In this document: piece by piece, positions 2 to 8,464 of the stretch
How positions within the stretch are numbered: the stretch's first letter is position 1
Layout: each line of letters begins with the position of its first letter
Source of the DNA: Spirosoma endbachense
Lineage (GTDB): Bacteria > Bacteroidota > Bacteroidia > Cytophagales > Spirosomataceae
Assembly: GCF_010233585.1 (NCBI RefSeq)
Contig: NZ_CP045997.1
Span: 4,903,284-4,967,283 of the forward strand
Length of the DNA: 64,000 nucleotides
Direction: 5' to 3'
The notes under the pieces: generated by a model
What the model was told of the DNA's origin: nothing
Database searches by the model: none
The model's input: only the letters and a program-made list of their open reading frames with translations
Position numbers and translations under genes: made by a program

Positions 2-2290
2 CAACCCGTTGTGCGGGCTGCGGTTGTGCTCGATTATGAGAAAAATACGACCGGCACCTATACTGACGATCAGGGCTATTTTTCGATAAAAGCCCGATCT
101 GGCCAGCATATCATCGTGGTTAGGAGCATCGGGTACGTCCCTTTCCGTACAACCCTTTATCTGCGCGAAAATAAGACGCTAAATGTACGCTTGCCATCGG
201 TATCCAGCCAGTTGGAAGAGGTCGTTGTCACCAGTAAAGGCTACGATCGAAATGTACGACAACCACTTCTGGGCGTTAGCCAGATTTCTATTCCTGCTCT
301 AAAAAAGATGCCCGCAGCGCTGGGTGAAGTCGATATTTTGCGTAGTCTGCAAATGCTCCCCGGTGTCACCAGCGTGGGAGAAGCGGCCAATGGGGTCAAC
401 ATTCGGGGTGGCACGACTGATCAGAACCTGATCCTCCTCGACGATACGCCCATTTTCAATCCGACCCACATGTTTGGGCTGTTTTCAGTTTTTCCGCCCG
501 ATGCCGTCGGTGGGCTTGATCTGTACAAAGGTAATGTACCGGCCCGCTACGGCGGACGGGCAGCATCGGTGCTCGACATTAGCCTGCGCAATCCTGATCT
601 GAATCAGTTTAAGCTTAGCGGTGGTGTTAGTCTTGTCTCAAATCGGCTGACGGTCGAGACGCCCATAATCAAAGGTAAACTGGCCCTGATGGTGTCGGGG
701 CGCGGAGCATTTAACGACTTTCTGCTGCGGCTGGTCTCGCCCCGGCTGGAAAATATTCGGGCTAAGTTCGGTGATGGTACGGCCAAACTATTTTGGCGGA
801 TAAACGACCGCAACACCATTACGGCTATGGGGTATTACAGTCAGGACTTGTTCCAGACCAATTTGTTGGGCAGTCTGGCCAATGTGAACTCGACTGCTAC
901 GCAATATGCCCAGCAAACCGCTAATGGAATGGTACGCTGGTTCCACGAATTCAATCCCCGGCTGAATCTGCAAACGACAGCGTTGGTGTCCCAATACATT
1001 CCTAAAATTTTATCTATTGAAGATAGTACCAACAACAAAGTCGTGCTGAAGCAATCGCTGCTGCAACGCCAGATCAAGTCGAACCTGAATTTTCAGCTGG
1101 AAAATCAGAAGCTGGAGATAGGCATAAGTGGCATCCAGTATCGACTTAACCCCGGCGAATTGATACCCGGTAGTAGCCCGGCTGTGAACTATCAGAAAAC
1201 CCCCAATGAAAATGCACTGGAACTAGCCATCCATGCCGAAGATGAGATCAGCGTGTCAGATCGGTTGGCTGTATCGGTTGGACTACGCTATTCGCACTTT
1301 TTGAGCCTTGGGCCGTCTGTTGTCCGTCGGTATGCCAGTGGCGAATCGGTCGATGCCACAACGGTCGTCGATTCAGTTCGTTACGAAGCTGGTCAGGTGA
1401 CCAGTCAATATGGCGGTTTGGAGCCTCGCTTAGGCTTACGTTATTCGTTGACGCCCAATGCTTCTATTAAAGTGGGCTATAATCTGATGCGGCAGTATTT
1501 ACAGGTGATTACGAATACAACGACCCCGTTGCCTACTGCCCGCTGGAAAACGTCCGACGCTCATATCCAGCCTCAGGTGAGCCAGCTATGGTCGGCCGGT
1601 TATTTCCAGAATTTCAAGAACAACATCTTTGAGTTATCGGCAGAGGTCTACTGGCGGAGTACGCAGCACGTGCTGGATTACAAGCCGGGCGCTGACTTTT
1701 TGCTACAACCGTATCCCGAAACGCAATTATTGCCTGGACGCAGCAAAGCGTACGGACTGGAGCTGATGATCGCCCGAAAAAAGGGAGAACTGACTGGCTG
1801 GATCAATTATACATTTTCACGAACGCTGAATCAGGTCAGTCAAGGGGTTGATTTTCAGCAGCAGATCAATAATGGTGACTGGTATCGGGCCAACTACGAC
1901 CGGCCTCACAGTTTGAACATGAGCCTGACGATCAATCAGGGCAAACACCACAGTTTTTCGTTCAACTTTGCCTATAGCACAGGACGACCTTATACGGCCC
2001 CCGAAGGGTTTATTCGCTATCAGGGCCGGACATACCCTTATTATGATGAGCGTAACCAGTATCGCTTACCTGACTATCACCGCCTGGATTTTGCCTGGAA
2101 CATCTACAATCCCAGTATGAAAAACCGGCGCTGGCAGAGCCACTGGACATTTACCGTGTATAATCTCTATGGTCGGAAGAATGTTTACTCGATTTTCTAT
2201 CGCACAGAGGGTCAGGGCACGAATCCGTATCGGCTAAGCATTTTTGGGGCACCAATCCCCAGTTTGACCTACAATTTTGAGTTTAAATAA
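2..2290 (+). CDS. TonB-dependent outer-membrane receptor with carboxypeptidase-like N-terminal domain (5' end missing)
   Basis: The frame is open from the first bases of the window, so the true start and signal peptide lie upstream; GTG at 11 is internal. The first ~70 residues are the end of a carboxypeptidase-regulatory-like beta domain (TYTDDQGYFSIKA) leading to LEEVVVTSKG. A plug domain follows (~95-200: DILRSLQMLPGV, GVNIRGG, LLDDTPIFNPTH), then a long beta-barrel ending in an aromatic-rich strand (SLTYNFEFK). It lacks the SusC YGSRA signature, so it is a plain TonB receptor rather than a SusC. It converges on the SCO/YHYH gene run; whether the two are linked cannot be told because the upstream side is missing. 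Confidence 0.85.
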   Translation, partial: QPVVRAAVVLDYEKNTTGTYTDDQGYFSIKARSGQHIIVVRSIGYVPFRTTLYLRENKTLNVRLPSVSSQLEEVVVTSKGYDRNVRQPLLGVSQISIPALKKMPAALGEVDILRSLQMLPGVTSVGEAANGVNIRGGTTDQNLILLDDTPIFNPTHMFGLFSVFPPDAVGGLDLYKGNVPARYGGRAASVLDISLRNPDLNQFKLSGGVSLVSNRLTVETPIIKGKLALMVSGRGAFNDFLLRLVSPRLENIRAKFGDGTAKLFWRINDRNTITAMGYYSQDLFQTNLLGSLANVNSTATQYAQQTANGMVRWFHEFNPRLNLQTTALVSQYIPKILSIEDSTNNKVVLKQSLLQRQIKSNLNFQLENQKLEIGISGIQYRLNPGELIPGSSPAVNYQKTPNENALELAIHAEDEISVSDRLAVSVGLRYSHFLSLGPSVVRRYASGESVDATTVVDSVRYEAGQVTSQYGGLEPRLGLRYSLTPNASIKVGYNLMRQYLQVITNTTTPLPTARWKTSDAHIQPQVSQLWSAGYFQNFKNNIFELSAEVYWRSTQHVLDYKPGADFLLQPYPETQLLPGRSKAYGLELMIARKKGELTGWINYTFSRTLNQVSQGVDFQQQINNGDWYRANYDRPHSLNMSLTINQGKHHSFSFNFAYSTGRPYTAPEGFIRYQGRTYPYYDERNQYRLPDYHRLDFAWNIYNPSMKNRRWQSHWTFTVYNLYGRKNVYSIFYRTEGQGTNPYRLSIFGAPIPSLTYNFEFK

Positions 2291-2373: not shown

Positions 2374-3057
2374 CTATTCGCGCAGCAATGTAGTCATGTC
2401 GGCAATCAGTTTATCGACATCCAGCGGCAATGTTCCGTTATAAATACCCCTGATTCGGCGGTTCTGATCGACCAGAATCAGGTGCTCGGTATGCAGAAAC
2501 TCCGTTGAATCTTTGGTGAAGCCAATCGCTTCTTCGGCAAAATAAGAGCGCCGGGCTAGCTCATATAGTTTGCCGCGTTCGCCAGTCAATAGATGCCATT
2601 TGGTCGAAATAATGCCCTTATTAGCTGCATACTGGCGAAGCCGGGGAATCGAATCGAGCCAGGGCGTAACGCTGAATGATATGAGAGCGACCTTCGGTTC
2701 ATGCAGAAAGGTATCCTGAACGGCTTTGAGCAGGTTGGTCATCTTTGGGCAGATACTGGGGCAGGCCGTAAAAAAGAAATTCGCAACATAAATCTTATTC
2801 GCAACCGACTCTTGCGTGATCAACCTGTTCGTCTGGTCGTAGAAGGCGAAATCGGCGATGCGGTGCGGAATTTTCTGCTGAATATCAATCGGGTTGGTTA
2901 ACCAAACCGGCGTAAAATCAGGTGTGTTGTAGTACGGAACTGGCTCGGAAGCCAACGCCTGCTGGCGATCAGCTGTTTCGGCCGACTGGCACCCGATCAG
3001 ACACGCCAGTAAAACCGACACGCCATTAATGCGAAACAGCAATTGAATCCCAGACAT
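2374..3057 (-). CDS. SCO1/SenC family thioredoxin-fold lipoprotein
   Basis: The protein is 227 residues with a lipoprotein signal peptide (lipobox LIGC) and a SCO fold: CPSICP supplies the CxxxC pair and HTEH the conserved downstream His, the three copper ligands of SCO proteins. The family delivers copper to cytochrome oxidase CuA or acts as a thiol reductase at the membrane. I chose ATG 3057 because it gives a clean signal peptide; ATGs at 3087 and 3099 would lengthen the n-region. The start overlaps the end of the MORN-like gene by 32 bp, so it is the last gene of the sigma-headed run beginning at 5935. Confidence 0.85.
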   Translation of the reverse strand: MSGIQLLFRINGVSVLLACLIGCQSAETADRQQALASEPVPYYNTPDFTPVWLTNPIDIQQKIPHRIADFAFYDQTNRLITQESVANKIYVANFFFTACPSICPKMTNLLKAVQDTFLHEPKVALISFSVTPWLDSIPRLRQYAANKGIISTKWHLLTGERGKLYELARRSYFAEEAIGFTKDSTEFLHTEHLILVDQNRRIRGIYNGTLPLDVDKLIADMTTLLRE

Positions 3058-3622
3058 TGACACAGTTTTTAACACCCGTAAATCCATAATTCCGGCCATT
3101 GCGGGCCACGTAATTTGCCTTCAGACTACCTTCGGCAAACCACATCTTTTGTGAGCCGCTTTCCTGCCCGTTCTGATAATGCTTATCCTGAGCGGGTTGG
3201 CCGCTTTGATACCATTCCTGACAGCGACCTTCGTAGATATCGTTTCGAAAGTGATAGACGAAAGCCAATTTTCCCGATTCGAACCAGCCGCGTTGCTCGC
3301 CTTCCTGCCAGCCATTCTGGTAGTGCCGGATTTCTTTTTGCCGTTGATCGGCATACCAATATCGATGCAAACCTTCTGCTTGCCCCTCATAGAAAGCACC
3401 GACGAACGAAGTATCGCCGTCCGGCCAGAGTTGGTATTGCCAGCCGCTGAAAGGTTTACCGTTTAGCCATAACTGGCCCTCGTGCCGCTGCCAGCCCGCC
3501 GAGCCTGCCGATACAAATTGAGCCGGAATCGTACGATCTCGCGGGCTACAACCGAACAGGCTCAGCAACAGGCCTACTACTACCAATAAGGGATTATTGA
3601 GTAACCGTACCTGCCTTGCCAT
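3026..3622 (-). CDS. MORN/YwqK-like repeat lipoprotein
   Basis: A 198-residue protein starting MARQVRLLNN with a lipobox (LFGC). The mature part is a chain of ~22-residue repeats of the type GxxEGxxxxWYxxGxxxxxxxYxNG (for example GWQEGEQRGWFESGKL), typical of MORN-like proteins that databases often name 'YwqK family antitoxin'. The name does not establish toxin biology; the signal peptide argues for an envelope location. ATG 3622 is used because the frame upstream of it is only an out-of-frame shadow of the YHYH gene. It overlaps the YHYH gene by 29 bp and the SCO gene by 32 bp, which suggests translational coupling. Confidence 0.7.
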   Translation of the reverse strand: MARQVRLLNNPLLVVVGLLLSLFGCSPRDRTIPAQFVSAGSAGWQRHEGQLWLNGKPFSGWQYQLWPDGDTSFVGAFYEGQAEGLHRYWYADQRQKEIRHYQNGWQEGEQRGWFESGKLAFVYHFRNDIYEGRCQEWYQSGQPAQDKHYQNGQESGSQKMWFAEGSLKANYVARNGRNYGFTGVKNCVNVWDSIAVSH

Positions 3623-4421
3623 AAAAGCCGCTGCCGTTGAGATAGGGGTCTTCGGCGGTGATGTGATAGTGATAAATGCCGTTGGGGTAATCAGCGGTAG
3701 CGTGAGAATGGCCATGATAGCTGTCCAGATCAGCGTTTGTGACGGTTTTGCCGTTTTCCTGAGGGCCATAAACCGGAAATCCATCGAGCAGGAAGCCGAG
3801 TAGCGCATCTTTACCTTTGTTCTTTGTGAGGTAGGTCGGCTCGACGTGGTAATGATATTGCCCCTGCTGTTGTGGATGCCCGCCATACTGATCGAACCCG
3901 TTGATTTCATTGGTGAGAGCTGCTCTCATGGCTGCGTATTGATTAAAAAACGCCACGCCATTTAACGCAATACCGATGGAACCCAGTGGTGTTGCTGCAT
4001 GAGAAGCCTCTATCTGAGGGTTCATCGGGATTTTAAAAGTCAGGCTAAACTCGCTGATGGTATTTGGATTGGCCCCGAATTTGGTGTTGGTTCCATTGTA
4101 GGCTTCGTAGAGGCTGCTTTCCCACTGCGTGCCTTTGTAATAAGGGCTCTTGTGATCGGGTCGCCCCTTTGTTTTAATCACAATGTTTGTGCCTTCCACA
4201 TAAATCTCCGAGGCTCCGTAAATCTTTTTGTACACATCCGGTACACCCGTGCCAACGGACACGGTGCTAGTAGTCGTTCCTGTTGCGGTTGTCGAACTTG
4301 TCGTTCCTGTTGTCGTAGCGGGAGTAACCGTGTTGTCGCTTTTCTGGCAGGCAACAACTGTTATCAGGCCTAGTAGAAGAGTCAATCCGCCTGAAGCGGT
4401 GATTATTCGTAGTCGATTCAT
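3594..4421 (-). CDS. YHYH domain-containing lipoprotein
   Basis: About 275 residues. A lipoprotein signal (LLGLITVVAC) is followed by a Thr/Ser-rich linker and a domain with two His-rich signatures, GQYHYHVEPT and GIYHYHITAEDP, plus DSYHGHSH. These match the YHYH protein family, secreted proteins of unknown function whose repeated His motifs look suited to metal binding. ATG 4421 gives n-region MNRLR; ATG 4436 and GTG 4457 are in-frame alternatives. It sits between the Spy-like and MORN-like genes. The pairing with a SCO protein makes a copper role attractive, but that is inference. Confidence 0.75.
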   Translation of the reverse strand: MNRLRIITASGGLTLLLGLITVVACQKSDNTVTPATTTGTTSSTTATGTTTSTVSVGTGVPDVYKKIYGASEIYVEGTNIVIKTKGRPDHKSPYYKGTQWESSLYEAYNGTNTKFGANPNTISEFSLTFKIPMNPQIEASHAATPLGSIGIALNGVAFFNQYAAMRAALTNEINGFDQYGGHPQQQGQYHYHVEPTYLTKNKGKDALLGFLLDGFPVYGPQENGKTVTNADLDSYHGHSHATADYPNGIYHYHITAEDPYLNGSGFYGKAGTVTQ

Positions 4422-4468
4422 ACGATTGGTGATCATTTGCTGCTTAGACGACACCACCGAATCGATTC

Positions 4469-5014
4469 CTACGGCCGTGATGGAAAATTTTCTGGCGGGC
4501 CTTCCGGGCGACCTTCTGGTGGACCCTCACCGTTTGGTCGTGGTGGGCGTTGACGTCTGCCGAACAAGTGGGCCAGATCATCTACCAGTTTCGTAAAATA
4601 GGGTTGCTGGTCGGGTTGGCACAAGGCTTTTATTTGCTGGAAATGCGCAAAATTAAGTTCGGCGATTGACCGCTGATTGTCGGCTATCTGATGGCTAAGG
4701 GTATTTGCTCGTGCTGAATCGGGTTGAGTAGATGCCAGTAGTCCATAATAAGCGCGGAATAGCTGAACCGACTCCTGGTTCAGAACCCGCGTTTGCCGTT
4801 GGTGTTCCTGAACTAGCTGACGGTATTGTTGCTGCTGTTGCGTATCAAAATGCAGTCGCTCGATAATGAGCCTTGCCGGTCCATCGCCTTCGGGTGGTGG
4901 GCCTTGAGAAAGGGAAGACGACTGATCAGGCTTGAGCCATACAAAACCTATCGTAAGCAGATTGAGTAGAAGTAATCCGATAACAGCAAAGGTTAGTAAT
5001 TTTGTCCGCTCCAT
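4469..5014 (-). CDS. Spy/CpxP-like periplasmic sensor or chaperone, membrane-anchored
   Basis: The protein has 181 residues: an N-terminal membrane anchor (TFAVIGLLLLNLLTIGFVWL), then a helical Gln-rich domain (LHFDTQQQQQYRQLVQEHQ) and a Pro/Gly/Arg/Glu-rich tail. The layout and the LxxxQQQxYxxLxxEH spacing fit LTXXQ/heavy-metal-sensor proteins (Spy, CpxP, CnrX) that sense periplasmic metal or misfolding and act with an ECF sigma system. Its start overlaps the small membrane protein upstream by 22 bp, and the ECF sigma gene lies two genes upstream. A sensing role on this sigma factor is inferred. Confidence 0.65.
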   Translation of the reverse strand: MERTKLLTFAVIGLLLLNLLTIGFVWLKPDQSSSLSQGPPPEGDGPARLIIERLHFDTQQQQQYRQLVQEHQRQTRVLNQESVQLFRAYYGLLASTQPDSARANTLSHQIADNQRSIAELNFAHFQQIKALCQPDQQPYFTKLVDDLAHLFGRRQRPPRPNGEGPPEGRPEGPPENFPSRP

Positions 5015-5310
5015 AGGTTATAAGGTTGGTTGGAGGTCGGGTCGAGTTGCATATCCGTTATGACCGCATTTAACCCGGCGTTATCATCAGACGCTTTTTC
5101 TGACAGCCGACTTGTTGCCCGCCAGTTAAGTAATAACAAGAGGGCAAGTGAGGCAATAGTTAGCCATACCGTTCGGGCTGGTACATACACCACCGACGTT
5201 GCCAGGCGATTCCGGATTCTGGTGTACAGAAATGGACCCGGTTCTGCCCGTTCAATACCATCAGCACTAGCCAGTATATCGTTGATCCATTTATCTTTTT
5301 TAGGTTCCAT
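4993..5310 (-). CDS. Small membrane protein, probable anti-sigma-like partner of the ECF sigma factor
   Basis: A 105-residue protein: a ~50-residue cytosolic segment (INDILASADGIERAEPGPFL, then YTRIRNRL), one membrane helix (LTIASLALLLLLNW) and a short outer part. Small single-span proteins with an 'ILxSxDGIxRAEPxPFLYTRI' segment commonly follow ECF sigma genes in Bacteroidota and are taken as anti-sigma or sigma-associated proteins. No zinc-binding ZAS motif is visible. ATG 5310 (MEPKK) is preferred over the in-frame TTG at 5328. It begins 31 bp after the sigma gene. Confidence 0.55.
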   Translation of the reverse strand: MEPKKDKWINDILASADGIERAEPGPFLYTRIRNRLATSVVYVPARTVWLTIASLALLLLLNWRATSRLSEKASDDNAGLNAVITDMQLDPTSNQPYNLWSGQNY

Positions 5311-5341
5311 ACTTAGGTCAGACGACAAATCGTTTTGATTC

Positions 5342-5935
5342 CTACGGCTTCTGTAGGGTTTTATAGAAACCAGCCAATTGTTTTTTTAGGTTTTCGGTAG
5401 CCCGCTGCAACAATGACTCTACAGCGCCAACACTAACAACCATAACGCTGGCTGCTTCAGTATTACTCAATGCTTCAATTCTTGTTAGAATATAGGCCGT
5501 TTTTTGTTTGTCGGGGAGTTTATCGATCGCCTTAAACAACATAGCCGCATTCTCCTGATTTTCAAGAGCAACACCCGGATGAATGAAATCGGTGGGATGG
5601 TGCAACACCTCACCTGTGCTATGATCGAATAAACTGGTAAAAAAGGCAAAACGCTTCTGTCGCTTTTTCTGCTTCAGGAAATCGAGCGATTTATTAACCG
5701 TAATTCGATACAGCCAGGTTGTGATGTTGGCATCACCTTTAAATGCCTCAATGGCCCGAAACACCTCGACAAACACATCCTGGGTAATTTCTTCGGCGTC
5801 TTCGCGCGTGCGTACATAGCTAAGAGCCGTATTGAAAACACGACTTTTAGTGGCTTCGTAAAGTTGCCGGAAAGCCGATTCATTGCCTTGCCGGATGGGT
5901 TCGATCAGTAATGACAGGTCGGGCGAGGTGGGCAT
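5342..5935 (-). CDS. ECF-type RNA polymerase sigma factor
   Basis: A 197-residue sigma-70 family protein. Region 2 is clear (FRQLYEATKSRVFNTALSYV, DAEEITQDVFVEVFRAIEAF, NITTWLYRITVN) and region 4 shows LPDKQKTAYILTRIEALSNT with the helix-turn-helix VSVGAVESLLQRA. It probably heads the run that continues with the anti-sigma-like, Spy-like, YHYH, MORN and SCO genes. The APH-fold kinase gene ends 7 bp before this start, so transcription may also read in from upstream. No clear promoter is visible because that gap is only 7 bp. Confidence 0.9.
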   Translation of the reverse strand: MPTSPDLSLLIEPIRQGNESAFRQLYEATKSRVFNTALSYVRTREDAEEITQDVFVEVFRAIEAFKGDANITTWLYRITVNKSLDFLKQKKRQKRFAFFTSLFDHSTGEVLHHPTDFIHPGVALENQENAAMLFKAIDKLPDKQKTAYILTRIEALSNTEAASVMVVSVGAVESLLQRATENLKKQLAGFYKTLQKP

Positions 5936-5942
5936 TTGGGCA

Positions 5943-6983
5943 TCATATTCCCAGCGCTTTCAGGATTTTCTCCGCGTCAAATTTTTCAATAGAGGGAAAA
6001 TAGAGTTGGTATGCTTCGCGCTGGAGTTTGGTGGCATACGTACGATGGAAAAAATACCGCCCGTATTTAATGACGTAATTTAAGATGAAAAAGCGATAGG
6101 CTTCGGGCAGGAAGCGTATTTCATTCTCTGTCAGCGGATAAACCTTATGATACTCCTGCAAAAACAGCATAAAGCGGTCTTCCATCAGTGGCCCTATGAC
6201 GTAGCTGAATACGGTTCGATCGCCAACGTTGGAAACGACCCGGCTGAAGAAATAAAAATCCATCACCCGATAGCTGATCCGAAACCAGTCGTAATCCCAG
6301 CGAGAATATAGCTCAAGGTTGTCGGTTACCGAGAAATTGCCGATGTTCCAGTCCACAAAAACGGGCATGGTTTCAACCGTTTTGGCAACCAGTTTCTGCC
6401 GGTTTTCCAGAAAGAGATTACATTGTCTTTTTAGTTCGTCGACATGCATCCGATGCTCATACTGACCAGCCTCCGTTTCCAGCAAATCAAGTAAGTCCCA
6501 AACATCGGATCGTAACGTTTTCGACGAGTTGGGCAGAACCGTACTCACGCGTGAACAGGCCTTGTGAAACTTGGCGATCTGATTACCAAGCTTTCGGATG
6601 TGGTGTTCTTCCAGCCGCCGGGGTAGCTTATATTGACTCCGGATCGGATTGTAAAACACAACCCATGCATCCACAAAGCCATCTTTATGCCGGTAGGTAT
6701 AAACCTGACCATCACGTACCAGCGATTTGGCCAGCACATTCTCAAAAGGATAGAGTAGGTTGTTGGAGAGGGCGTGGATAATGCGGTGATCTTCTACAAA
6801 ATGCTCATACTTACCAAAATAGGAGAGTTTGGCAATGATACTGTCGCCATCTTCAAACGTAACTTTGAAAACGTGATTTGTAGAAACCTTGGCACTTATG
6901 TCCGTAATGGTATCAATCTGTACCGACGGATCGAAGCTGGCCCAAGCTTTTTTTATAATTGTGGGGTAATCGACTAGACGCAT
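5943..6983 (-). CDS. Aminoglycoside-phosphotransferase-fold (APH) kinase
   Basis: A 346-residue protein with an APH-like kinase layout. The N-lobe carries VFKVTFEDGDSIIAKLSY, where Lys in IAKL is the likely ATP-binding residue. The catalytic loop FVDWNIGNFSV is a variant of HxDxxxxN, with Trp-Asn where His-Asp variants are usual, and WDYDW acts as the DFG-like metal site. Substrate is unknown; relatives phosphorylate choline, homoserine, sugars or aminoglycosides. It follows a glutamine-synthetase-like gene across a 110-bp palindromic spacer and stops 7 bp before the sigma gene. Resistance is not implied by the fold. Confidence 0.65.
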   Translation of the reverse strand: MRLVDYPTIIKKAWASFDPSVQIDTITDISAKVSTNHVFKVTFEDGDSIIAKLSYFGKYEHFVEDHRIIHALSNNLLYPFENVLAKSLVRDGQVYTYRHKDGFVDAWVVFYNPIRSQYKLPRRLEEHHIRKLGNQIAKFHKACSRVSTVLPNSSKTLRSDVWDLLDLLETEAGQYEHRMHVDELKRQCNLFLENRQKLVAKTVETMPVFVDWNIGNFSVTDNLELYSRWDYDWFRISYRVMDFYFFSRVVSNVGDRTVFSYVIGPLMEDRFMLFLQEYHKVYPLTENEIRFLPEAYRFFILNYVIKYGRYFFHRTYATKLQREAYQLYFPSIEKFDAEKILKALGI

Positions 6984-7093: not shown

Positions 7094-8464
7094 TTAAATA
7101 ATTTCGAAATATCGTTTTAATTCCCAATCACTGACCTGGCCGACATATTGCCGCCACTCCCAGTCACGTGTACGGGTGAAATGGTCAACAAATTCGGCAC
7201 CAAACAGTTCAGATGCAATGGGTGAATTTGCCATGGCTCGGGTGGCTTCTGATAAATTTGCCGGTAGGACACCGTGTTTTTTATCGGCGTATCCATTGCC
7301 CACAGAGGCTGGTATGTCGAGCGTTAGTTGATGCCGGATACCGTATAAACCAGAAGCCAATGCCGCAGCAATGGCCAGATACGGGTTTGAGTCAGAGCCC
7401 GAAACCCGGTGTTCGACGCGGGTATAGGCTTCTGTTCGGTTCAGCACCCGCAGTGCCGTTGTCCGGTTATCGACCGACCAGGTTACTGTTGTCGGAGCCC
7501 AGGCACCTTCTACCAGCCGTTTATAGCTGTTTATGGTTGGTGCAAACATGGGTGTTATGTGTGGCAGACAATGCAACTGGCCGGCAATGAATTGACTCAT
7601 CAGTTCGCTCATGCAGTTTGGCCGGGCCGGATCGTAGAACAGATTTTTGGTTTGTTCCGGATTCCAGAGACTTTGGTGGATGTGGCCGCTGCAACCGGGT
7701 AGATCGGCATTCCATTTGGCCATGAACGTAGCAACAAGCTCGTGTCGGTAAGCAATTTCCCGAACGGCTGTTTTGAATAAAATAGCTTTATCGGCTGCTT
7801 TGAGAACTTCATCGTGCATGATAGCCGCTTCGTATACGCCCGGTCCGGTTTCCGTATGGAGCCCTTCGAGCGGTATATCGAACTCACCCAGCAGATCGAA
7901 CAGGTCATGATAAAAAGCGCTTTCGAGCGAAGGACGAAGAATCGAGTAACCAAACATGCCCGGCGTTAGTGTTTCTAAATTCCGGAAGCCTTTTTGTTGC
8001 AGGCTCTGCGGAGTTTCCCGAAAGTTAAACCACTCAAATTCTTGTGAATATTCGGCATGAAAGCCCATTGTACCGCAATCGTGAGCAATCCGTTTCAGTA
8101 ACGATCGAGGGCAGGCCGCTAAATCGCTGCCCGGTTTGCCGTTGCCATCGGCGCTAAAGTCAGCCAGAAAGAATGGAATTCCATCCTCCCAGGGAACCTG
8201 CCGGAACGTAGCCAGATCGAGCCGGACCGGAGCGTCGGGATAGCCGGAATGCCAGCCCGTTGTGCGTCCATTGTCGTAGGGTGTATCGGATGAATCCCAG
8301 CCCCAGACAACATCACAGAATCCGTAACCATCAGCTAGGCCATCCAGAAATTTTTGTCGGCCAATGATTTTGCCCCGAAGCACACCGTCGATGTCGGCAA
8401 AGGCGAATTTGATTTTTTGTATATCGTTTTGTTCGATGAAGGAAATAATGTCTTGCTGATTCAT
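7094..8464 (-). CDS. Glutamine synthetase-like ligase (GlnA/PuuA/FluG superfamily)
   Basis: A 456-residue protein with the GS layout: an N-terminal beta-grasp domain (IQKIKFAFADIDGVLRGKII), the catalytic stretch HTETGPGVYEAAI, the ATP/glutamate loop DLPGCSGHIHQSLW and VDNRTTALRVL in place of the usual NRS-A-R-IP segment. Length fits type I GS and gamma-glutamylpolyamine or amine synthetases. The altered N-terminal segment (DIDGVLRG) and NRTT motif resemble the PuuA/FluG-like branch, which joins glutamate to amines other than ammonia. I therefore avoid the name glnA. An APH-fold kinase follows in the same direction. Confidence 0.8.
   Translation of the reverse strand: MNQQDIISFIEQNDIQKIKFAFADIDGVLRGKIIGRQKFLDGLADGYGFCDVVWGWDSSDTPYDNGRTTGWHSGYPDAPVRLDLATFRQVPWEDGIPFFLADFSADGNGKPGSDLAACPRSLLKRIAHDCGTMGFHAEYSQEFEWFNFRETPQSLQQKGFRNLETLTPGMFGYSILRPSLESAFYHDLFDLLGEFDIPLEGLHTETGPGVYEAAIMHDEVLKAADKAILFKTAVREIAYRHELVATFMAKWNADLPGCSGHIHQSLWNPEQTKNLFYDPARPNCMSELMSQFIAGQLHCLPHITPMFAPTINSYKRLVEGAWAPTTVTWSVDNRTTALRVLNRTEAYTRVEHRVSGSDSNPYLAIAAALASGLYGIRHQLTLDIPASVGNGYADKKHGVLPANLSEATRAMANSPIASELFGAEFVDHFTRTRDWEWRQYVGQVSDWELKRYFEII

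What the first reader, a model, noticed from the sequence alone, without database searches (positions are those of the whole stretch)
2374..5935. Sigma-headed SCO/YHYH/MORN/Spy envelope module
Six overlapping or tightly spaced genes combine an ECF sigma factor, a small anti-sigma-like membrane protein, a Spy/CpxP-like sensor, a His-rich YHYH lipoprotein, a MORN-like lipoprotein and a SCO-type copper/thiol protein. YHYH proteins have no known function. The set suggests a self-regulated system for handling copper or thiol stress at the membrane, with YHYH as a possible metal carrier and the Spy-like protein as the sensor.
Basis: partly seen in the sequence, partly recalled or inferred. Interest (0 to 1): 0.7.

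Follow-up and report, generated by a model that had tools for sequence, protein, structure and literature searches.

The report
Copper-linked YHYH–MORN–SCO envelope operon
A three-lipoprotein gene block built on a protein family of unknown function (YHYH) recurs across Bacteroidota beside a relative of copper chaperones, which suggests that YHYH may be an overlooked copper protein of the cell envelope.

Summary
The six genes are real (window 5935→2374, minus strand; Spirosoma-like genome). They are two modules. Core: YHYH→MORN→SCO, three predicted lipoproteins. Among 123 distinct loci fetched by YHYH similarity alone, 118 have MORN and SCO downstream on the same strand; two misses are contig ends, three (L046, L190, L191) are true. 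Chance adjacency of SCO is about 0.2–0.3% per genome. Block SCOs split from sampled other SCOs at 100/100; the genome's two other SCOs sit with cytochrome oxidase genes or a cytochrome c. SCO keeps CxxxC and His, MORN a C-terminal Cys, YHYH its His/Asp sets. The YHYH model (pLDDT 90) has no significant PDB match. The sigma/anti-sigma/Spy head is optional (50 of 123). In 13 of 25 head loci sampled it fronts MbnP- and MbnH-like genes, in 12 with a long YHYH. Two different copper-linked partner sets point to copper; this is inferred, not measured. My literature searches showed no description of either arrangement.

The parts
5342..5935 (-). ECF sigma factor (SIG), 197 aa
   Evidence: Pfam Sigma70_r2 7e-17, r4_2 1.4e-11; invariant HPG at 119-121 in 25 aligned
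4993..5310 (-). Small one-helix membrane protein, probable anti-sigma (ORF open to 5328)
   Evidence: No Pfam; present in 50 of 51 loci with both SIG and Spy; nearly invariant F33, N68 and one hydrophobic segment read by eye
4469..5014 (-). Spy/CnrX-like membrane-anchored periplasmic sensor (PF13801), 181 aa
   Evidence: Metal_resist 2.9e-11; profile matches Spy 1.2e-4 and NccX 6.8e-4 in PDB; H71 98%, H124 100%, C132 96% of 50
3594..4421 (-). YHYH lipoprotein, short type, 275 aa (ORF open to 4457)
   Evidence: PF14240 1.6e-23; lipobox VVAC; H182,H190,H192,D213,H238,H251,H253 in 123 of 123; AF2 pLDDT 90.4
3026..3622 (-). MORN-repeat lipoprotein with conserved C-terminal Cys
   Evidence: MORN_2 1e-6, under cut-off; MORN-like model; lipobox LFGC; C-terminal Cys in 31 of 31 aligned, 99% of 119
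2374..3057 (-). SCO lipoprotein (ORF open to 3099)
   Evidence: PF02630 9e-21; best PDB match a chain named Sco1, 1on4, 1.5e-17; C113, C117 98%, H203 99% of 117; lipobox LIGC

Best explanation
The set is an envelope copper-handling operon. Core (shown: conserved block): three lipoproteins, YHYH, MORN and SCO. Inferred step 1: SCO, with its CxxxC and His, carries Cu(I) and loads it into YHYH, or keeps a thiol reduced so that loading works, as SCO proteins do for the CuA site of cytochrome oxidase (general knowledge). Inferred step 2: the MORN lipoprotein, with its conserved C-terminal Cys, is the docking scaffold or relay between SCO and YHYH. Inferred step 3: YHYH is a copper protein using the site shared by both types (H182, H190, H192, D213) and, in the short type, a second His-rich set (H238, H251, H253). 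Optional head (shown: conserved trio; inferred: function): the Spy/CnrX-like protein senses periplasmic metal, the small membrane protein releases the sigma factor, and the sigma factor raises expression of the operon. Other genomes use the same head with MbnP- and MbnH-like genes and, in most of those, a long YHYH.
For: MORN and SCO downstream of YHYH, same strand, in 118 of 123 loci chosen only by YHYH similarity, plus 7 of 7 short-type loci fetched later. No other neighbour family recurs comparably (next best 14 loci). Block SCOs separate from 29 other SCOs at 100/100. The genome has one SCO beside COX1/2/3 and another beside a cytochrome c. SCO ligand residues kept in 98-99% of 117. The same head fronts MbnP+MbnH-like genes in 13 of 25 head loci, 12 with a long YHYH (Pfam run on 3 of the 13 pairs plus L303, that is four pairs, the rest by profiles built from those four). 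MbnP lies within 6 kb of 13 of 45 full-length YHYH genes versus 0.31 expected. One long YHYH lies 25 bp from a multicopper oxidase gene. Shared H/H/H/D set in 123 of 123 short and 22 of 22 long.
Against: No metal was measured. Three loci truly lack MORN and SCO after YHYH: L046, L190, L191. MbnP/MbnH matches are above Pfam cut-offs but below NCBIfam cut-offs, so their copper role is by family resemblance. 32 of 45 full-length YHYH genes have no MbnP within 6 kb, nor do 12 of 13 of the 530-557 aa type. Eight of 25 head loci have neither YHYH nor MbnP/MbnH. A published prediction makes YHYH a Zn hydrolase (PMC7824862, passage read). A sulfatase abuts YHYH in five loci, which may point to enzymology. 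The Met that CnrX needs for signalling is replaced in the sensor by Ile, Val or Leu in 30 of 30 (need for the Met from PMC7689651 passages).
Confidence: 0.55

Rival explanations
1. YHYH is a Zn-dependent hydrolase of cell-wall or surface glycans; SCO acts as a thiol reductase or assembly helper, and copper is incidental.
For: Published prediction of a His triad plus Asp Zn site and a tail-associated hydrolase in jumbo phages (PMC7824862 passage); an H/H/H/D set is conserved here in both types; cyanophage YHYH proteins match the model; a sulfatase lies 5-87 bp from YHYH, same strand, in five loci.
Against: Does not explain why short YHYH is with SCO in 118 of 123 loci or why full-length YHYH is near MbnP far above chance.
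Confidence: 0.2
2. Thiol/disulfide stress system: SCO is a thioredoxin-like reductase, the MORN Cys its substrate, and YHYH a structural protein.
For: SCO has a CxxxC site; the MORN lipoprotein has a conserved C-terminal Cys; the sensor has a near-invariant Cys.
Against: The SCO distal His is 99% conserved; no further partner family recurs in more than 14 loci (most of those families were not identified, so a Dsb or Trx partner in some loci is not excluded); other loci with the same head carry MbnP/MbnH-like genes.
Confidence: 0.15
3. The head senses misfolded envelope proteins, as Spy/CpxP do, and the block is a general envelope-stress output.
For: The sensor profile scores best against Spy (1.2e-4).
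Against: 71 of 123 loci have none of the three head genes; H71, H124, C132 are near-invariant, which a pure chaperone would not obviously need; 17 of 25 head loci lead into YHYH and/or MbnP/MbnH-like genes, though 8 do not.
Confidence: 0.1

Closest known systems
SCO1/SenC copper chaperones (PDB 1on4 Sco1, 1xzo YpmQ)
   Same: PF02630 above cut-off, CxxxC and distal His, lipoprotein
   Different: Separate from 29 sampled other SCOs at 100/100; neighbours are YHYH and MORN, not cytochrome oxidase
CnrYXH / NccYXH metal-sensing sigma trio of Cupriavidus
   Same: ECF sigma, small membrane protein and PF13801-type periplasmic sensor as a gene trio; sensor profile matches NccX 6.8e-4, sigma profile matches CnrH 6.9e-16
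   Different: Sigma scores higher against a sigma-H, SigW and RpoE than against CnrH; no PDB match of the anti-sigma to CnrY; signalling Met position is Ile/Val/Leu in 30 of 30; gene order differs (Cnr order recalled)
MbnP/MbnH pair
   Same: Same regulatory head in 13 of 25 head loci; encoded beside the long YHYH in 15 fetched loci
   Different: Not found in the short-YHYH loci searched; below NCBIfam cut-offs
PF14240 YHYH proteins of phages and diatoms
   Same: YHYH domain; viral predicted structures match the model
   Different: The viral matches at E <= 0.001 are large proteins, about 525-1480 aa; here a small lipoprotein with an extra His set and SCO/MORN partners

Membership tests
PF14240 YHYH | Profile score over curated cut-off | tested here: met
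   84.1 vs 25 bits
SCO1/SenC | Profile over cut-off; CxxxC and distal His | tested here: met
   74.7 vs 22.8 bits; residues present
SCO1/SenC | Cu binding and delivery to cytochrome oxidase CuA | not testable with these tools
   Genome has another SCO beside COX genes
MORN repeat protein | MORN_2 profile cut-off; MORN fold | tested here: inconclusive
   Profile 28.7 vs 29.6 bits, just under; model matches MORN1 and SET7/9 at E 3e-4 to 1e-3
CnrYXH | PF13801-like periplasmic sensor | tested here: met
   44.1 vs 29.2 bits; NccX match 6.8e-4
CnrYXH | Signalling Met (CnrX Met123) | tested here: not met
   Position aligned with the NccX Met is I 15, V 9, L 6 of 30; that it equals CnrX Met123 is inferred; need for Met123 from PMC7689651 passages
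CnrYXH | Anti-sigma related to CnrY | tested here: inconclusive
   No CnrY match to E 10; CnrY is very short (recalled)
MbnP/MbnH (second locus type only) | PF20243 and PF03150 over cut-off | tested here: met
   Four pairs run; e.g. L303 138 vs 27 and 188 vs 25.6 bits
MbnP/MbnH (second locus type only) | NCBIfam TIGR04052 / TIGR04039 cut-offs | tested here: not met
   Three pairs run; L303 40.8 vs 140 and 225 vs 363 bits, L226 MbnP no match; so MbnP/MbnH-like

The most novel reading that the evidence does not exclude
YHYH is a new class of copper protein with a fold not yet in the PDB, present in two regulated forms: a short lipoprotein matured by a dedicated SCO plus a Cys-tipped MORN lipoprotein, and a long secreted form that works with an MbnP/MbnH-like pair; both can be driven by one CnrYXH-like sensor head.
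Probability: 0.42. Interest if true: 0.85.

Novelty: new variant of a known kind. Interest (0 to 1): 0.7.

Why it matters
PF14240 is a large family (5038 homologues at E ≤ 0.001 among 7643 candidates) for which my searches showed no measured function. Its tie to SCO in one form and to MbnP/MbnH-like genes in part of another gives a direct, testable hypothesis (copper) and names the partners to co-express. It also adds a candidate metal-sensing sigma trio for Bacteroidota and a possible client for SCO outside cytochrome oxidase assembly.

Tried and rejected

Selection and dropped rows: of 27 named loci I used 26 (L058, a weak Verrucomicrobia hit, left out). 100 stretches were taken from hits, mostly strongest first; several weaker hits were not fetched. 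Four loci whose YHYH was identical to another's were dropped before the counts. 'Downstream' means same strand within 6 kb; in L151 three further YHYH-like ORFs lie before or between. The SCO tree used 60 block SCOs (every second one, plus the window and L245) and 29 others. The sigma tree used 41 of 55 short-context heads, 13 with MbnP/MbnH and 9 others, by the quick method. The 42 genomes were picked by their long YHYH hits, after some MbnP neighbours had been seen. Gene calls were longest-ORF, not trained gene finding.
Full report
Setting. The window lies in a 10.33 Mb single-contig genome; its YHYH protein is 95% identical to one named Spirosoma aureum. The six genes lie on the minus strand from 5935 to 2374 and overlap or nearly touch. 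The genome has one YHYH gene, three SCO genes and one Metal_resist gene.

What is conserved. After removing four loci with identical YHYH, 123 remained. Profiles seeded with the window proteins placed MORN downstream of YHYH on the same strand in 120 of 123 and SCO in 118 of 123, both in 118. Two of the five misses are contig ends (L203, where MORN is present, and L214, where MORN is cut). Three are real: L046, a Cyanobacteria MAG, and L190 and L191, where the sigma head and YHYH are followed by another gene. The genomes of L190 and L191 (G413, G447) have complete blocks elsewhere (L153; L151, L160). Seven further short-type loci all had the block (L222, L224, L230–L234); five of them came from the phylum-wide sample. 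In a genome of about 6 Mb with three SCO genes, chance adjacency within 3 kb is about 0.3%; in this genome 0.2%.

The block is a unit of its own. All-against-all comparison of the other neighbours found nothing near this frequency; the next families occur in 14, 13, 12 and 12 loci. Repeated copies exist (L150 YHYH-MORN-YHYH-MORN-SCO; L057 two blocks plus a YHYH). Within the genus, 14 of 25 sampled genomes have a YHYH match, so it is accessory. An Ignavibacteria MAG contig (L032) carries the full six-gene set.

The block's SCO is distinct. A tree of 60 block and 29 other SCOs puts each group on one side of a 100/100 branch. Of the genome's other SCOs, one sits with COX1, COX2, COX3 and DUF420, the other beside a cytochrome c. 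So the block's SCO is not the only candidate for oxidase assembly, and its constant neighbours are YHYH and MORN.

Residues. SCO: C113 and C117 98%, H203 99% of 117. MORN: C-terminal Cys in 31 of 31 aligned, 99% of 119. YHYH: H182, H190, H192, D213 in 123 of 123 short and 22 of 22 long proteins; H238, H251, H253 in 123 of 123 short ones, while the long proteins do not align there. Sensor: H71 98%, H124 100%, C132 96% of 50. A missing match is not proof of a new fold.

The head. SIG, the small membrane protein and the Spy-like sensor precede YHYH in 50 of 123 loci; 71 have none of the three and two are partial. The sensor profile finds Spy (1.2e-4), NccX (6.8e-4) and, weakly, CnrX (listed as CnrR, E 0.13 to 1.3) in the PDB. 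In CnrYXH, metal binding by CnrX releases CnrH from CnrY (PMC7689651, passages read). The trio here is similar in parts but differs in ligands: the position aligned with the NccX Met, taken to be CnrX Met123, is Ile, Val or Leu in 30 of 30, and a Cys lies four residues further on in 28 of 30. I read it as working like CnrYXH without calling it a member.

A second YHYH locus. Searching 119 class genomes with the sensor profile gave 25 head loci at 67 bits or more; their contexts were read. Three are short-YHYH blocks (window, G613, G623). Thirteen continue with an MbnP-like gene (PF20243) and an MbnH-like di-haem gene (PF03150); twelve of these have a long YHYH next, one (L309) a sulfatase. Pfam was run on four of the thirteen pairs (L229, L300, L303, L311); the others were found with profiles built from those four. 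One has only the di-haem gene and eight have neither. One long YHYH examined (L303) carries a T9SS sorting tail. In 42 genomes chosen for long YHYH hits, MbnP lies within 6 kb of 13 of 45 full-length YHYH genes against 0.31 expected, P about 3e-17 by Poisson, which ignores relatedness; 32 of 45 have none. Of the other YHYH ORFs there, 1 of 13 of 530–557 aa and 0 of 9 of the rest had MbnP within 6 kb. In a quick sigma tree the contexts mix: starred branches force at least two changes for the long label and four for the short one, so one head family seems to have served both kinds more than once; support is by SH-aLRT only, and several rows have long branches.

What MbnP/MbnH are. In the methanobactin literature they are conserved partners far beyond methanobactin producers, then of unknown role (PMC3621798, passages read). 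The somewhat similar CorA and MopE proteins bind copper with two His and a kynurenine, thought to be made by a di-haem partner (PMC3912023, passages read). Later work on MbnP/MbnH copper binding is recalled (Kenney 2019, Manesis 2021; the two identifiers I tried are not held).

Conclusion. Two different partner sets, SCO+MORN and MbnP+MbnH-like, and in one locus a multicopper oxidase (L220), surround YHYH; SCO, MbnP/MbnH and the oxidase are copper-linked families. The simplest account is that YHYH is a copper protein of the envelope and that the window's operon loads and regulates it. Shown: conservation, clade structure, residues, shared head, co-location. Inferred: copper, SCO-to-YHYH transfer, MORN relay, metal sensing, autoregulation. 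The mended count of true misses does not change my odds.

What is in print. Searches for YHYH (44 papers, 30 listed, 3 papers) showed no functional study; the passages I read were a jumbo-phage Zn-hydrolase prediction (PMC7824862), a diatom Pfam mention (PMC11992049) and a pelagiphage mention (PMC7029224). Searches gave listings in which I saw no such operon; from the papers in them I read passages of three (PMC10141476; PMC3621798; PMC3912023). PMC7689651 came from the Cnr search and was read in passages. The library holds open-licence papers only.

Noticed in passing
L176:6143-7468, L188:8269-9597, L189:6098-7393, L208:8270-9586, L221:5021-6625; also L309:9191-10616, L220:12529-14121: One sulfatase subfamily abuts YHYH, same strand, 5-87 bp, in five loci of both YHYH types; it follows the MbnP-MbnH-like pair in the place of YHYH in L309 and lies near a YHYH-multicopper oxidase pair in L220. 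PF00884 was confirmed for L188, L309 and L220, the rest by profile.
   Followed up: partly
L184:1175-2494, L185:6937-8256; L044:7329-7991 and just upstream of YHYH in L151: An extra N-terminal secreted/TM module (no Pfam in L185 and L044) is fused to YHYH in two loci and, as a similar-looking separate ORF, directly precedes YHYH in two others; a second divergent YHYH of 317-328 aa lies beside it.
   Followed up: partly
L218, L221, L226, L228, L229, L298-L300, L303-L308, L311: Loci with MbnP-like, MbnH-like and long YHYH genes, some with repeated parts (L221 two YHYH, L228 two MbnP-like and three MbnH-like).
   Followed up: yes
L190:8361-8883 and L191:8446-9701: In two loci with the sigma head, YHYH (two copies in L190) is followed not by MORN-SCO but by an ORF, cut at the contig end, that begins alike in both.
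   Followed up: no
window 5943-6983 and 7094-8464: A 346-aa gene (weak homoserine-kinase-like match) ends 7 nt before the sigma gene, with a glutamine synthetase upstream; families like them recur on the same strand in 12 and 13 of 123 loci.
   Followed up: no
window 11-2290: A TonB-dependent receptor-like gene converges on the end of the operon; also in L117.
   Followed up: no
L041: YHYH and SCO are each split over two ORFs in a Crocinitomix MAG; sequencing error or decay.
   Followed up: no
L057:5667-5978 and L211: Small EF-hand protein directly upstream of YHYH (Pfam for L057; L211 by clustering).
   Followed up: no
14 and 12 of 123 loci: A family that looks by eye like a LytTR response regulator, and a membrane protein family, occur near some blocks, possibly an alternative regulator (not run through Pfam).
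   Followed up: no
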